From an uncultured Flavobacteriales bacterium (lineage in GTDB: Bacteria > Bacteroidota > Bacteroidia > Flavobacteriales_D > CAJJDF01), in the NCBI GenBank assembly GCA_905182785.1, contig CAJJDF010000016.1, positions 1 through 64,000 on the forward strand: a stretch of DNA of 64,000 nt. The letters run 5' to 3'. Positions 19,794 to 54,495 of the stretch are shown one piece after another. Position 1 is the first letter of the stretch; each line of letters begins with the position of its first letter. Position numbers and translations under genes: made by a program. The notes under the pieces are model-generated. The model ran no database searches, was not told where the DNA came from, and worked only from the letters and a program-made list of their open reading frames with translations.

Positions 19794-22490
19794 ATGAAAC
19801 ATATACTATCAATACTAGCAGTAACACTTTTATTTACAAGTTGTAAAACATTAAAACAACCTAGAAATTCTGATCCAATAGAAGTTGTGGCATTGCCAGA
19901 ACTTACTATTCAGGAAGTAGATAGAAATGCCAAAACTGAAGTTGCCGATTACCAAGCAAGTAATAAAAGGGTAAATGATTTATTACATACCAAACTGGAT
20001 GTAAAATTTGATTGGGAAAAGCAATATTTGTACGGAAATGCAGAGCTTACTTTCAAGCCTTATTTTTATTCTACTAACGAATTGGTGTTGGATGCAAAGG
20101 GAATGGATATAAAATCTGTTATACTTATTGACACAGTTGTTATTTCAGGTTTCCAATACTTAACTAAACATCCATCAAAAATAGATTTGAAGTATACCTA
20201 TGATGGAATGAAAATCACTATTGATTTGGGCAAAACCTATACAAGAAAAGAAACTTATACTATTAAAATAGACTACACGGCAAAGCCAAACGAAATTGAA
20301 GCGATTGGAAGTAGTGCAATCACAGATGAAAAAGGGTTGTATTTTATAAACCCATTAGGAACTGATCCTAAAAAAATGCCACAAATTTGGACTCAGGGAG
20401 AAACTGAAGCAAGTTCGTGTTGGTTTCCTACTATTGATTCTCCAAACGAGAAAACGACTCAAGAAATATCCATTACAGTAAAAGATAAATACCTGACTTT
20501 ATCAAACGGAAAGATGATATCATCTACAAAAAATGCAGATGGAACAAGAACCGATTATTGGAAACAAGATTTGAAACACGCTCCGTATTTATTTATGATG
20601 GCAGTAGGAGAATTTGATATTACAAAAGATTCTTGGACTCGCCCAGATGGTAGAAAAATGGAAGTGAATTATTACACAGAGCCAGAATACACGCCTTACG
20701 CAAAAGCAATTTTTGGTAAAACTCCAAAAATGATTCAGTTCTTCTCGGATAAACTAGGAGTAGAATACGCTTGGGACAAATACAACCAGATTGTGGTAAG
20801 AGATTACGTGTCGGGAGCTATGGAAAATACTACGGCAGTAATTCACGGAGATTTCTTGTACCAAACGGATAGAGAATTGTTAGATTCTGATAACGAGTCT
20901 ATCATTGCACACGAATTGTTTCACCATTGGTTTGGTGATTTGGTAACGTGTGAGTCTTGGTCAAACCTTACGGTAAACGAATCTTTTGCAAATTACAGCC
21001 AATACTTGTGGGATGAATTTGAACACGGTAAAGTAGTGGCAGACAGAAATGCTTTTGGAGAAATGTCAGGTTACTTTCTTTCTTCGGGTCAAAGTGGATA
21101 CCACGATTTGGTGTATTTTGATTATGAAAGTGAAATGGAAATGTTTGATGGAACTTCTTACAACAAAGGAGGAAGAGTCTTACACATGTTGAGAAATTAC
21201 GTAGGAGATGAAGCATTCTTTTTGTCTTTGAAACATTACTTAGATAAAAAAAGATTTGGTACAGGAGAATCACATGATTTAAGGCTTTCTTTTGAAGAAG
21301 TAACCGGAGAAGACATGAACTGGTTTTTTAACCAATGGTATTTCGACAAAGGGCATCCAACATTAAATTTCACACAAGAGTATGATGAAATAACAAAGAA
21401 ACTGACCGTAACAGTAGAGCAAAGACAAGATTTAGAAAAATTTACTGTGTTTCAATTGCCAATAGGAATTGATATTTATACAAAGGGAGGAATAGAAAGA
21501 AAAAACATTACTGTAACAAAAACGAATCAATCTTTTGATTTCTATACAGAGGCCCCTTTATTAGTAAACATAGATGCAGACAAAGTTCTTTTGTGTAAGA
21601 AGACAGAGGAAAAATCAATGGAACAATGGATTTATCAATTGAATAATGCACCTCTTTATTTGGATAAAAAAGAAGCATTTGCAAAAGTTAAAAACAGCAA
21701 AGATACTTCTTATGTGAATGCTGTATTTGGAATGTTGGAACAACCTCATTACGATTTCAATAACATGGCAATGGGTAAATTGTCTGAGCTGAAAAAACAA
21801 CAACCAGAAAAATTAAAAGCAACTTTATTGAAATTAACAACAAACAAAAAATCTTCGGTAAGGGCAAATGCCTACAAAAACTTAGAAGGATATTTTGGAG
21901 AAGATGCAGGTCACGAAAAGCTATTGGCAAAAGGATTAAAAGATAATTCATACAAAGTAATAGGAGTTTGTTTGGGAGCTTTGGCAAATAATAATCCAGA
22001 AAAAGCAATGGAAGTTGCCAAAGATTTAGAAAACGAAAAAAGTAATGCTGTTAGTTCTGTGTTGGCAAGTTTGTATGCCGATCATGGAACAAAAGAAAAT
22101 CATGATTTTTTCAAAAATGCTATTTCCAATACAGGAGGATTTGCAAAATATGGATTGCTTAATCAATATTCTTCTTACCTGAGCAGATTAGATGAAAAAG
22201 ACATTTCTGATTCTTACGAAGTATATGAAAACGTAATTTTAACTTCTAGTACTTGGTGGATAAAAATGGGAGGTTACCAAGGATTACTAGCTGCAAAAAA
22301 CAGAATGACAAATAGGATTAGTGAGTTGAATACAGAGTTAAGCACTGTTTCTGATTTGATGAAAAAATCGAAAATTGAAAGAGGAATTAACGATTATAAA
22401 GTAGAAATAGACAAAATAAATTCAGTTTATAAGAAAGTAAAATCAGAAGAGAAAGACAGTAAAGTACTTGATTACTTAAAAAATATGTAA
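19794..22490 (+). CDS. M1 family zinc aminopeptidase lipoprotein
   Basis: An 898-residue exported aminopeptidase. The N-terminus ends in LLFTSC, a lipobox at about residue 17, so the enzyme is probably lipid-anchored in the envelope. The M1 signature is complete: GAMEN at 341-345 for substrate amino-terminus binding, and HELFHH at 373-378 with E396, giving zinc ligands H373, H377 and E396. After about residue 600 a helical HEAT-like C-terminal domain follows. It would release N-terminal residues from imported or external peptides, alongside the neighbouring M3 and DPP IV peptidases. Confidence 0.9.
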   Translation: MKHILSILAVTLLFTSCKTLKQPRNSDPIEVVALPELTIQEVDRNAKTEVADYQASNKRVNDLLHTKLDVKFDWEKQYLYGNAELTFKPYFYSTNELVLDAKGMDIKSVILIDTVVISGFQYLTKHPSKIDLKYTYDGMKITIDLGKTYTRKETYTIKIDYTAKPNEIEAIGSSAITDEKGLYFINPLGTDPKKMPQIWTQGETEASSCWFPTIDSPNEKTTQEISITVKDKYLTLSNGKMISSTKNADGTRTDYWKQDLKHAPYLFMMAVGEFDITKDSWTRPDGRKMEVNYYTEPEYTPYAKAIFGKTPKMIQFFSDKLGVEYAWDKYNQIVVRDYVSGAMENTTAVIHGDFLYQTDRELLDSDNESIIAHELFHHWFGDLVTCESWSNLTVNESFANYSQYLWDEFEHGKVVADRNAFGEMSGYFLSSGQSGYHDLVYFDYESEMEMFDGTSYNKGGRVLHMLRNYVGDEAFFLSLKHYLDKKRFGTGESHDLRLSFEEVTGEDMNWFFNQWYFDKGHPTLNFTQEYDEITKKLTVTVEQRQDLEKFTVFQLPIGIDIYTKGGIERKNITVTKTNQSFDFYTEAPLLVNIDADKVLLCKKTEEKSMEQWIYQLNNAPLYLDKKEAFAKVKNSKDTSYVNAVFGMLEQPHYDFNNMAMGKLSELKKQQPEKLKATLLKLTTNKKSSVRANAYKNLEGYFGEDAGHEKLLAKGLKDNSYKVIGVCLGALANNNPEKAMEVAKDLENEKSNAVSSVLASLYADHGTKENHDFFKNAISNTGGFAKYGLLNQYSSYLSRLDEKDISDSYEVYENVILTSSTWWIKMGGYQGLLAAKNRMTNRISELNTELSTVSDLMKKSKIERGINDYKVEIDKINSVYKKVKSEEKDSKVLDYLKNM

Positions 22491-22508
22491 GGCTGCAAGA
22501 TGAGTAGG

Positions 22509-22616
22509 TTACTTTTCTTTTTTAAGGATTAGTTGAGGTTTCAACTTAACTTTTTTACTTTCTGTACAACAAAGACAAACATTCTGGCAACAGAGATGAC
22601 CGTGATTACAATCCAT
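22509..22616 (-). CDS. Cys-rich 35-residue reading frame overlapping the gene upstream
   Basis: An ATG at 22616 opens a frame of 35 codons starting MDCNHGHLCCQNVCLCC and ending in a lysine-rich tail. It overlaps the last 11 bases of the preceding gene in the +1 frame. Its C-x-H-x8-C-x2-C pattern nearly matches the C-x-H-x9-C-x2-C motif that occurs twice in that gene, so it is either a coupled small protein or a third repeat put out of frame by a one-base change. Six cysteines and two histidines in the first 17 residues make metal binding plausible. Confidence 0.4.
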   Translation of the reverse strand: MDCNHGHLCCQNVCLCCTESKKVKLKPQLILKKEK

Positions 22617-23304
22617 TAATAGAATCATTTATTCTATAATTTGAATCGTTTTGAATTTTATCTTCATCCCTACATTGTGGGCAACCTTCCCCTCTATGTC
22701 CATCAAAATTATGTTTACAAAAACGGGTAGATTTAATTTCATGCAATTTATTGTAATATGCATTTTTCTTGTAATTAGAGTCATTTTGCATTTTATACTG
22801 ATGTAAACATTGATAACAAGCTTGTCCTCTTAATTGATTCCAACCGTGTTCGCAAGTATTTGGTTCCCTTGGTTTAAAATCTAATAATGGAGAAGGATAC
22901 ATTCTTTGTAAATGATATTCGTAATAATAGCCCCAAGAAGAATTGCCAATGTAAGTGTATACTTTTTTTCCTAAAATGGAATAAGTAGAATCTCCGTATT
23001 TAAAATTGTAAGGGTTTGGTTTATTGTAAGGAAAATTAGCATGAGGTCCCTCAGTGAATTTTCTGTTTCCAATCTTTACTAATTTGTAATAAATAGTTGG
23101 ACTGTTTAAGACGCTATTTTGAAACACCAATTGCTCATTGAGCCAGGCCGAATCATTTTCTATGATTAATTTCCCTCTCAAGCTGTCTTCAATAGCTATT
23201 AAAACTGCGATTTTCTTTGTTGAGGTTATGTCTTGAGAAAACAAGGAGCCACAACAAATTAATAGAAAAAGAATAGCTAGAGATGGTTTAAAAAAAATTA
23301 TCAT
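22606..23304 (-). CDS. Secreted protein with two Cys/His zinc-ribbon-like repeats
   Basis: A 232-residue exported protein of no family I recognise. A signal peptide covers residues 1-24 (ending SLFSQ). The middle is beta-rich with tyrosines. The C-terminal part holds two copies of one motif: C151-x-H153-x9-C163-x2-C166 and C196-x-H198-x9-C208-x2-C211, each followed by a QNDSNY segment. Such spacing suggests metal-binding knuckles, unusual for an exported protein. A downstream overlapping frame carries a third similar motif. Confidence 0.6.
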   Translation of the reverse strand: MIIFFKPSLAILFLLICCGSLFSQDITSTKKIAVLIAIEDSLRGKLIIENDSAWLNEQLVFQNSVLNSPTIYYKLVKIGNRKFTEGPHANFPYNKPNPYNFKYGDSTYSILGKKVYTYIGNSSWGYYYEYHLQRMYPSPLLDFKPREPNTCEHGWNQLRGQACYQCLHQYKMQNDSNYKKNAYYNKLHEIKSTRFCKHNFDGHRGEGCPQCRDEDKIQNDSNYRINDSINGL

Positions 23305-23454
23305 AAATCTAAGTTAGAGAAAAGAGAATTTTATAAATCATTATTAGTAAACTTTAACAATAATACTTCATTCTGTTCTCTATTCCATCACAACTTCATT
23401 ACCTTAGTATTCTTTAAAACGAAGGACTAATTAAAAACGACAAATTACTAAACC

Positions 23455-25143
23455 ATGTCAGACGATAAAAAAATAATATTCTCAATGGATAGAGTGAATA
23501 AAACCACTCCATCTGGACAACACATACTAAAAGATATTTACCTTTCTTTCTTCTACGGAGCCAAAATTGGAATCCTTGGACTGAACGGATCTGGGAAATC
23601 TACTGTAATGAAAATTATTGCAGGATTGGATAAGGAATACCAAGGAGAAGTAGTTTTTCAAGACGGTTACACTGTTGGTTATTTACCGCAAGAGCCAACT
23701 TTAGATCCTACAAAAACGGTAAAAGAAATTGTAAAAGAAGGAGTACAATCTACCATGGATATTTTGGCAGAATACGAAGAGATTAACAATAGATTCATGG
23801 ATGAAGAAATCATGAATGACCCTGATAAAATGAACGACTTGATTGAAAAACAAGGTAAAGTTCAGGAACAAATTGATCATTTGGATGCTTGGGATATTGA
23901 CAGTAAATTGGAAATGGCAATGGGAGCATTAAGAACTCCAGAAGGGGATACGCCTATCAAGAATTTATCTGGAGGGGAATTAAGAAGAGTTGCTTTGTGT
24001 AGACTTTTATTACAAAACCCAGATGTATTGCTATTGGATGAGCCTACCAATCACTTGGATACTGAATCGGTACAATGGTTGGAGCAACATTTACAACAAT
24101 ACGCAGGAACTGTAATAGCAGTAACTCACGATAGATTTTTCTTAGATAACATTGCAGGATGGATTCTAGAATTGGATAGAGGAAAAGGAATTCCTTGGAA
24201 AGGGAATTATTCATCTTGGATGGAGCAAAAATTAAAAAGGTTGCAACAAGAAGAAAAATCAGAAAGTAAAAGACAAAAACATTTACAAAGAGAGTTGGAA
24301 TGGGTGAATCAGAATCCTAAAGGAAGAAGAGCGAAAAATAAAGCTCGTATCGCCAATTATGAAGATATGTTGAGTCAAAAATCTGCTGAGAAAGAAGCAA
24401 TTTTGGAAATTCCAATTCCTAACGGACCAAGATTAGGAAAAGAAGTAATAGAAGCTACTAATGTGGCAAAAGCATTTGGGGATAAAGTATTGTACGAAGA
24501 TTTGAATTTCAAATTACCACCAGCTGGAATTGTAGGGATTATTGGTCCTAACGGAGCAGGGAAAACGACAATGTTCCGTATGATAATGGGAGAAGATACA
24601 CCAGACTCTGGAGAATTTAAAGTAGGGGATACAGTAAAGATTGGTTATGTGGATCAAAAACACAAAGACATGGATCCTGAAAAAACTGTATTTGAAGTTG
24701 TTTCTGGAGGTGCTGATAACATTGAGATTGGTGGAGAGAAAATAAACGCTAGATCGTACATTTCAAGATTTAATTTTGGAGGTAATAGTCAAAGTAAAAA
24801 AATAAAAGTGCTTTCTGGAGGAGAAAGAAACAGATTACACTTGGCAATGACATTGAAAACAGAAGCCAATGTTTTACTACTGGATGAGCCAACCAATGAT
24901 TTGGATGTAAATACACTGAGAGCTTTAGAAGAAGGGATTCTAAATTTTGCAGGATGTGCAGTAATTATTTCTCACGATAGATGGTTCTTAGAAAGAATTT
25001 GTACGCATATTCTTGCTTTTGAGAATGACTCGGAAGTGTATTTCTTTGAAGGAACTTACGAAGAGTACGAAGAGAACAAAATCAAGCGTTTAGGTAATCA
25101 AATTCCTACAAGAGTGAAGTATAAAAAACTGATGAGGGATTAG
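23455..25143 (+). CDS. ettA: Energy-dependent translational throttle protein EttA (ABC-F ATPase)
   Basis: A 562-residue soluble ABC-F protein that binds the ribosomal E site and gates translation with the cell's energy level in E. coli. Two ATPase domains: Walker A GLNGSGKST and GPNGAGKTT; signatures NLSGGELRR and VLSGGERNR; Walker B LLLDEPTNHLD and LLLDEPTNDLD. The linker between them contains the arm and P-site tRNA interaction motif region (KLKRLQQEEK). The opening SMDRVNKTTPSGQHILKDIYLSFF and length match EttA rather than other ABC-F paralogues. Single gene with a strong terminator. Confidence 0.92.
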   Translation: MSDDKKIIFSMDRVNKTTPSGQHILKDIYLSFFYGAKIGILGLNGSGKSTVMKIIAGLDKEYQGEVVFQDGYTVGYLPQEPTLDPTKTVKEIVKEGVQSTMDILAEYEEINNRFMDEEIMNDPDKMNDLIEKQGKVQEQIDHLDAWDIDSKLEMAMGALRTPEGDTPIKNLSGGELRRVALCRLLLQNPDVLLLDEPTNHLDTESVQWLEQHLQQYAGTVIAVTHDRFFLDNIAGWILELDRGKGIPWKGNYSSWMEQKLKRLQQEEKSESKRQKHLQRELEWVNQNPKGRRAKNKARIANYEDMLSQKSAEKEAILEIPIPNGPRLGKEVIEATNVAKAFGDKVLYEDLNFKLPPAGIVGIIGPNGAGKTTMFRMIMGEDTPDSGEFKVGDTVKIGYVDQKHKDMDPEKTVFEVVSGGADNIEIGGEKINARSYISRFNFGGNSQSKKIKVLSGGERNRLHLAMTLKTEANVLLLDEPTNDLDVNTLRALEEGILNFAGCAVIISHDRWFLERICTHILAFENDSEVYFFEGTYEEYEENKIKRLGNQIPTRVKYKKLMRD

Positions 25144-52599: not shown

Positions 52600-54495
52600 T
52601 TATTTCTCTTCAGTCACTTCTTCAAAGTCAACATCCGTTACTTCTTCGTCACCTTCGTTAGATTCAGCTCCTCCTTCTGGTTGAGCTCCTCCTTCTGGTG
52701 ATGCGTACATTTCTTGACTAGCTGCTTGGAAAACTGTATTTAGTTTTTCAATTCCTGCTTTCATTGCATCCAAATCTGCTGTTTCATGAGCTGCTTTTAA
52801 TGCAACTAACGCTTCTTCAATTGGTGCTTTTTTGTCTGCTGGAATCTTATCTCCATACTCTTCAAGTTGTTTTTCCGTTTGGAAAATCAAACTATCTGCT
52901 TCGTTTACTGTTTCAGCTTGTTCTTTCTTTTTGTTGTCTTCGTCAGCATTTGCTTCTGCTTCTTGCTTCATTTTTTCAATATCTGCTTCACTCAATCCTG
53001 AAGAAGCTTCAATTCTAATGTTTTGCTCTTTACCAGTTGCTTTGTCTTTTGCCGATACATTGATGATTCCGTTAGCATCAATATCAAAGATTACCTCTAC
53101 TTGTGGTTCTCCTCTTCTTGCTGGTGGAATATCAGTTAATTGAAATCTTCCTAGCGTTCTGTTGTCAGCTGCCATTGGTCTTTCTCCTTGTAATACATGG
53201 ATATCTACCGCTGGTTGGTTATCTGCTGCTGTAGAGAATACCTGAGATTTTTTTGTTGGAATAGTTGTGTTTGATTCAATTAATCTTGTCAATACACCTC
53301 CCATAGTTTCAATCCCAAGAGATAATGGAGTTACATCAAGTAACAATACATCTTTTACTTCTCCTGTAAGAACTCCTCCTTGAATTGCTGCACCAATTGC
53401 TACAACTTCATCAGGATTTACTCCTTTAGACGCTTCTTTACCAAAGTATTTTTTTACTGCATCTTGTACAGCTGGGATTCTTGTAGAACCTCCTACCAAG
53501 ATAACTTCATCAATATCACTGTTTGATAATCCTGCAGCTTTCATTGCAGTTTTACATGGCTCGATTGTTCTTTTTACCAAGTCATCAATCAATTGCTCAA
53601 ATTTTGCTCTAGTCATACTTCTTACCAAATGCTTTGGAATTCCGTCTACTGGCATGATATAAGGCAAGTTGATTTCTGAAGTAGCTGTACTAGATAATTC
53701 AATCTTAGCTTTTTCAGCAGCTTCTTTCAATCTTTGTAATGCCATAGGATCTTCTCTTAAGTCAATTCCTTCGTCACTTTTAAATTCTTCGGCCAACCAA
53801 TCAATAATTTTTTGATCTACATCATCCCCACCTAAGTGAGTATCTCCGTCAGTTGAAAGTACTTCAAATACTCCGTCTCCTAATTCAAGGATAGAAACAT
53901 CATGAGTTCCTCCACCAAAATCAAAAACAACTATTTTTTGGTCTATGTCTTTTTTGTCCAATCCATAAGCTAATGCTGCTGCAGTTGGCTCATTTATGAT
54001 TCTTTTGATAGTTAATCCAGCAATTTCTCCAGCTTCTTTAGTAGCTTGTCTTTGCGAATCATTAAAATATGCAGGTACTGTAACTACAGCTTCAGTAACT
54101 GTTGTACCCAAATAATCTTCAGCAGTTTTCTTCATTTTTTGAAGAACCATTGCAGATATTTCTTGTGGAGTATATAATCTATCGTCTATTTTTACTCTTG
54201 GTGTATTGTTGTCTCCTTTAACTACTTTGTAAGGTACTCTTGCGATTTCCTTTTTACATTCGTCAAATTTGTTACCCATAAATCTCTTGATAGAGTAAAT
54301 TGTTTTTGTTGGGTTAGTGATCGCTTGTCTTTTTGCAGGATCTCCTACCTTTCTTTCTCCTCCTTCAACAAAAGCAACTACAGAGGGTGTAGTTCTTTTA
54401 CCTTCGCTATTAGGAATTACTACCGGCTCATTTCCTTCCATTACGGAAACACATGAGTTAGTCGTCCCTAAATCTATTCCTATTATTTTGCCCAT
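52600..54495 (-). CDS. dnaK: Molecular chaperone DnaK (Hsp70)
   Basis: A 631-residue cytosolic chaperone. ATPase domain with [25 protein letters not shown] and [11 protein letters not shown]; substrate-binding domain with [18 protein letters not shown] and [23 protein letters not shown]-terminal lid ending in [11 protein letters not shown]. No grpE or dnaJ is adjacent. The upstream region contains unusual palindromes (see 54568-54624). Confidence 0.97.

What the first reader, a model, noticed from the sequence alone, without database searches (positions are those of the whole stretch)
22509..23304. Exported Cys/His-repeat protein followed by an out-of-frame third repeat
The protein has two C-x-H-x9-C-x2-C motifs at identical spacing. 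Directly after its stop, in the +1 frame and starting at an overlapping ATG, is a 35-codon frame with a third, nearly identical pattern (C-x-H-x8-C-x2-C) and six cysteines. It is either a coupled metal-binding microprotein, a programmed frameshift product, or a recent frameshift.
Basis: partly seen in the sequence, partly recalled or inferred. Interest (0 to 1): 0.55.

Follow-up and report, generated by a model that had tools for sequence, protein, structure and literature searches.

The report
Frameshifted tail of exported Cys/His protein
A genus-restricted, probably exported protein with cysteine/histidine repeats has lost its last repeat to a fairly recent frameshift: in the nearest relative found, the same repeat is still part of the protein, so this is ordinary gene decay rather than a new mechanism.

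Summary
The 232-aa minus-strand ORF (22606-23304) has two C-x-H-x9-C-x2-C motifs. A third Cys/His cluster lies in the +1 frame across its stop codon (22509-22628). The third cluster is homologous to real coding sequence: in the closest relative found (G001, at the syntenic place) it is the in-frame third motif of one 340-aa protein (14 of 28 residues identical), and a fourth copy follows. All six Cys and both His are kept between the two, four of the six Cys codons differing only by TGC/TGT. The more distant pair, G002 and G003, have one motif and no trace of the third. The small frame is thus not conserved as a separate gene anywhere I could look. Best reading: an in-frame repeat was put out of frame in the window's lineage by an indel in the linker of a freshly duplicated repeat unit, recently relative to the split from G001. 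A translationally coupled microprotein is not excluded but has no positive support and would lack a signal peptide. Programmed frameshifting is unlikely. The whole family is an orphan confined to one genus (4 of 4 genomes; no other hit). Ordinary, modest interest.

The parts
22606..23304 (-). Exported orphan protein, 232 aa; hydrophobic N-terminal signal-like segment ending LFSQ, genus-specific domain with ...VYTYIGNSSWGYY..., then two C-x-H-x9-C-x2-C units
   Evidence: ORF and translation; orthologues in 3 of 3 other genomes of the genus at the same locus; export inferred from sequence only
22807..22854 (-). Motif a, CEHGWNQLRGQACYQC, conserved in all four genomes of the genus
22672..22719 (-). 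Motif b, CKHNFDGHRGEGCPQC, probable duplicate of unit a specific to this lineage
   Evidence: DNA alignment of unit b to unit a score 53 against a maximum of 37 in 300 mononucleotide shuffles
22609..22628 (-). 20-nt zone between the +1-frame stop (22629-22631) and the 0-frame stop (22606-22608), where both frames are open; any switch of frame must lie here
22509..22628 (-). +1 frame with the displaced third motif (DCNHGHLCCQNVCLCC), 39 codons (35 from the second ATG at 22616)
   Evidence: 14 of 28 identical to in-frame residues 233-260 of G001 orthologue P0003
19794..22490 (+). Convergent M1-family peptidase, 18 nt beyond the small frame; marks the conserved locus
   Evidence: Pfam PF01433 E 1.8e-43; neighbour also in L028 and L030, its C-terminal part also in L029
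23455..25143 (+). Divergent ABC-F ATPase, the other flank of the locus
   Evidence: 96% and 92% identical orthologues on the same contigs in G002 and G003; the name ABC-F is recalled, not from a call

Best explanation
The gene encodes a secreted, fast-evolving protein of one Flavobacteriales genus. Its C-terminal tail is built of short Cys/His units (probably zinc-binding; inferred) whose number changes by unit duplication and loss. In the common ancestor of the window species and G001 the tail included a C-x-H-x-H-x-C-C-x3/4-C-x-C-C unit in frame. In the window lineage unit a was duplicated to give unit b, and indels in the linker between b and the next unit put that unit in the +1 frame. The protein now ends after two motifs, and the third survives as an out-of-frame remnant that has not had time to decay. 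Shown: in-frame homologue, conserved ligand positions, spacing change, synteny. Inferred: direction of change, non-translation of the remnant, metal binding and export.
For: G001 orthologue (L003 1006-2028 -, 340 aa) carries CNHGHICCLTTFCECC in frame after the unit equivalent to a. G000 and G001 are sisters by the neighbouring M1 peptidase (68% identity against 54-57% to G002/G003; G002-G003 73%). Tail identity to G001 is 0.47, like the in-frame part at 0.49; 6 of 6 Cys and 2 of 2 His are kept, with 4 Cys codons changed synonymously. Simulation: if the piece had been free for more than about a quarter of the window's branch, keeping all 8 ligands has P below about 0.06. Motif b to c is 109 nt (36 codons + 1), against 135 nt for a to b here and 141 nt for the equivalent G001 spacing. 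The window end lacks the intrinsic terminator that the three relatives have just after the gene, as expected if this 3' end was rearranged.
Against: Only one relative has the third motif, so the direction (loss of frame here rather than fusion in G001) rests on parsimony: the motif must have been coding to keep its Cys codons, and the segment belongs to a protein with an export signal. The eight conserved ligand positions are also what a still-translated frame would show. No reads, strains or ribosome data were available.
Confidence: 0.75

Rival explanations
1. The third unit has become a separate, translationally coupled Cys-rich microprotein: ribosomes ending at TAA 22606-22608 restart at the ATG at 22616 (or 22628) and make 35-39 aa.
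For: Start and stop lie very close. All eight Cys/His ligands are intact. The passages of PMC6728339 that I read describe termination-reinitiation at overlapping genes, with Bacteroidetes using little Shine-Dalgarno.
Against: No relative has a separate frame: G001 has it in frame, and G002 and G003 show no trace in any of the three same-strand frames in about 110 nt after their stops (by eye). The product has no signal peptide while the homologous segment belongs to an exported protein. The RNA fold of the junction is unremarkable (z -1.74).
Confidence: 0.14
2. Programmed ribosomal frameshifting makes a minor longer product carrying the third motif.
For: Homology of the tail to the in-frame C-terminus of G001.
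Against: A +1 (or -2) shift is needed within 20 nt, codons AAT GAT TCT ATT AAT GGA TTG TAA; none matches the +1 sites I recall (release-factor-2 type), and a -1 slippery heptamer would give the wrong frame. G001 needs no shift.
Confidence: 0.03
3. Sequencing or assembly error: the protein of the living organism still runs through the third motif.
For: The genome is in 73 contigs. No strain copies could be compared.
Against: There is no long homopolymer at the switch zone. The b-to-c linker is also 26 to 32 nt shorter than its counterparts, so real indels exist there.
Confidence: 0.08

Closest known systems
Orthologue in G001 (public record CALLII010000101.1, uncultured Flavobacteriales bacterium MAG; locus L028/L003)
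   Same: Same locus beside an M1 peptidase, 48-49% identical over the aligned part, same motif types including the C-x-H-x-H-x-C-C unit
   Different: Four Cys/His units, all in one frame; an extra gene lies between it and the M1 peptidase
Orthologues in G002 (JAHEIE010000046.1, Crocinitomicaceae bacterium MAG) and G003 (JALRIS010000202.1, Flavobacteriales bacterium MAG)
   Same: Same locus, 41-46% identical, motif a
   Different: Only one Cys/His unit and a terminator-like hairpin directly after the stop
Pfam zinc fingers (zf-RING_14 PF17978; Prok-RING_4 PF14447)
   Same: Cys/His metal-ligand spacing in general
   Different: All scores under the curated cut-offs: 15.8 of 26.6 bits for G001, 9.2 of 27 bits for the window protein

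Membership tests
Genus-restricted exported Cys/His protein family (this study) | N-terminal domain with E-D-S ... Y-T-Y-I-G-N-S-S-W-G and C-x-H-G-x5-G-x2-C-x2-C | tested here: met
   Alignment of four orthologues; each of 4 genomes has one match to the motif pattern
Pfam or NCBIfam zinc-finger family | Score above the curated cut-off | tested here: not met
   no family above cut-off
Translationally coupled gene pair | Downstream frame conserved as a separate ORF in relatives | tested here: not met
   G001 has it in frame; G002 and G003 lack it; only 3 relatives exist in the held set
Programmed +1 frameshift gene | Recognisable slippery site and conserved frame break | tested here: not met
   Zone codons read directly; the frame break is absent in G001. 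The site list is from recall.
Zinc-binding protein | Metal bound by the Cys/His ligands | not testable with these tools
   AlphaFold model too poor to judge (mean pLDDT 42.2)

The most novel reading that the evidence does not exclude
A repeat module of an exported metal-binding protein was split off by frameshift and retained as a coupled, cytoplasmic Cys-rich microprotein: a caught-in-the-act case of small-protein birth by frameshift.
Probability: 0.12. Interest if true: 0.45.

Novelty: new member of a known kind. Interest (0 to 1): 0.2.

Why it matters
It explains an odd-looking overlapping frame as gene evolution: a fast-changing, genus-specific secreted protein gains and loses Cys/His units, and one unit has just been shifted out of frame. 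The family itself is not in the libraries searched but is small. Its use is as a caution against calling such remnants microproteins without looking at relatives.

Tried and rejected
Fold prediction of the window protein on the 4-row alignment gave mean pLDDT 42.2 and pTM 0.25, so no fold search was made. PDB sequence search with the profile: only one hit, E 0.53. Plasmid and phage records: no match to P0003. Viral contigs: none. Defence models: none. A profile of the third motif alone (A3, which includes the window's own row) hit the window and five other genomes of 395 with E 0.007 to 0.09, partial matches that I did not follow up. The hypothesis that loss of an intervening gene removed a fourth unit was considered but left open, because the intervening gene differs between G001 (585 aa) and G002/G003 (280-281 aa). 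The pattern was miswritten by one codon (it missed the known copies) and was replaced.

Full report
Observation. The minus-strand ORF 22606-23304 encodes 232 aa with a hydrophobic N-terminal segment (MIIFFKPSLAILFLLICCGSLFSQ) and two motifs, CEHGWNQLRGQACYQC and CKHNFDGHRGEGCPQC. The +1 frame 22509-22628 encodes MILLMDCNHGHLCCQNVCLCCTESKKVKLKPQLILKKEK. In that frame a stop lies directly upstream of the first ATG (22629-22631) and the 0-frame stop lies at 22606-22608, so the only stretch where both frames are open is 20 nt long. The motif is well above chance: three stop-free copies in six frames of the window against 4 in 6.0 million codons of first-order Markov sequence; expectation 0.07 and 0.05 per window for the x9 and x8 DNA patterns. 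One search also matched at 52756, but that match holds an in-frame TAA.

Relatives. In a search of 100 relatives, 4 of 100 genomes (the window's own and the three others of its genus) have a match. In the order sample it is 4 of 399, the same four. In the phylum sample it is 1 of 395, the window's own. The genus set held is 4 genomes, all 4 with a match. The family is thus an orphan of one genus as far as these samples go. Named records that match are MAGs labelled uncultured Flavobacteriales bacterium, Crocinitomicaceae bacterium and Flavobacteriales bacterium.

The third motif is in frame in the sister species. G001's orthologue (340 aa, L003 1006-2028 -) has CNKGHNKGVGKPCEIC, CKHGHNMNAGQACYQC, CNHGHICCLTTFCECC and CAHSHDCCSSNCPCC in one frame. 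BLASTP of the window's small frame to it: 14 of 28 identical, E 4e-7 for this single pair. The genus search with the G001 protein found the small frame by itself (E 7.4e-4). G002 and G003 have only the first motif; about 110 nt after their stops no similar motif is seen in the three frames of that strand (read by eye). A pattern for C-x-H-x-H-x-C-C found the window copy, both G001 copies and one G002 place elsewhere (C38) that I did not characterise.

History. By the adjacent M1 peptidase the window and G001 are sisters (68% over 887 codons; 54% to G003 over 382 codons and 57% to an 80-codon piece of G002; G002-G003 73% over 81 codons). The locus is the same in all four: the gene lies convergent to the M1 peptidase, directly in the window, with one other gene between in the three relatives. 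The ABC ATPase flank is present in G002 and G003; it was not found as an orthologue in G001's 90%-complete assembly, only a 38% paralogue was. Unit b in the window looks like a duplicate of unit a (DNA score 53; 300 mononucleotide shuffles: mean 22.3, maximum 37). Unit b against G001's second unit is not significant (26.5 against a shuffle maximum of 35.5), so descent of b from a within this lineage is an inference; the repeat finder at its settings listed no repeat family here. First-codon spacing is 135 nt from a to b, 109 nt from b to c, and 141 nt between the equivalent G001 motifs. The break in frame lies in this shortened linker.

Age of the frame break. Over 32 aligned codons the tail has 8 identical, 7 synonymous and 17 changed codons, amino-acid identity 0.47, against 0.49 for 224 in-frame codons of the same pair. 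All six Cys and two His are kept and four Cys codons differ by TGC/TGT. With third-position divergence 127 of 224 taken as neutral (Jukes-Cantor 1.06, half on each branch), the chance of keeping all eight ligands is 0.32 if the tail was free for a tenth of the window's branch, 0.063 for a quarter, 0.038 for 0.3 and 0.005 for half. So the tail was coding in this frame for most of the time since the split. Either the break is recent, or the frame is still under constraint; the data do not separate these fully. The assumptions (equal branches, neutral third positions) make this a rough bound.

Function and mechanism. Pfam, NCBIfam and PADLOC give no family above cut-off (PADLOC has no curated cut-off in this tool and gave nothing at E 0.1). 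The structure model is uninformative. From the ligand spacing I infer zinc-binding units on a secreted protein; this is not shown. The three relatives each have a terminator-like hairpin just after the gene and the window has none in 22300-23600, which fits a rearranged 3' end.

Alternatives. Reinitiation at the nearby ATG is physically plausible. Passages of PMC6728339 describe termination-reinitiation and little Shine-Dalgarno use in Bacteroidetes. The start of the abstract of PMC9976891 in the search listing says that Bacteroidia ribosomes fail to recognise Shine-Dalgarno sequences. But nothing here supports a separate product positively. Programmed frameshifting lacks a site and lacks a need in the relative. 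An assembly error cannot be excluded without reads.

Verdict. The finding is an ordinary decay event in an orphan gene.

Noticed in passing
window 22606-23304 compared with L002, L003, L004: The orphan protein evolves very fast: 41-48% identity within a genus whose adjacent ABC ATPase is 92-96% identical (G003, G002), while the stretch YTYIGNSSWG is invariant in all four.
   Followed up: partly
between M1 peptidase and this gene: L002 309-1151, L004 576-1421, L028 2047-3804: The spot between the two conserved genes holds different PKD-like, putatively sorted exported proteins in relatives (280-281 aa in G002/G003, a 585-aa ORF in G001) and nothing in the window: a variable insertion place (domain labels by eye).
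   Followed up: partly
L003 1093-1146 and 1261-1320: The C-x-H-x-H-x-C-C-x3/4-C-x-C-C unit matched no Pfam family above its cut-off; its occurrence outside the genus is unsettled (five genomes with weak partial hits).
   Followed up: no
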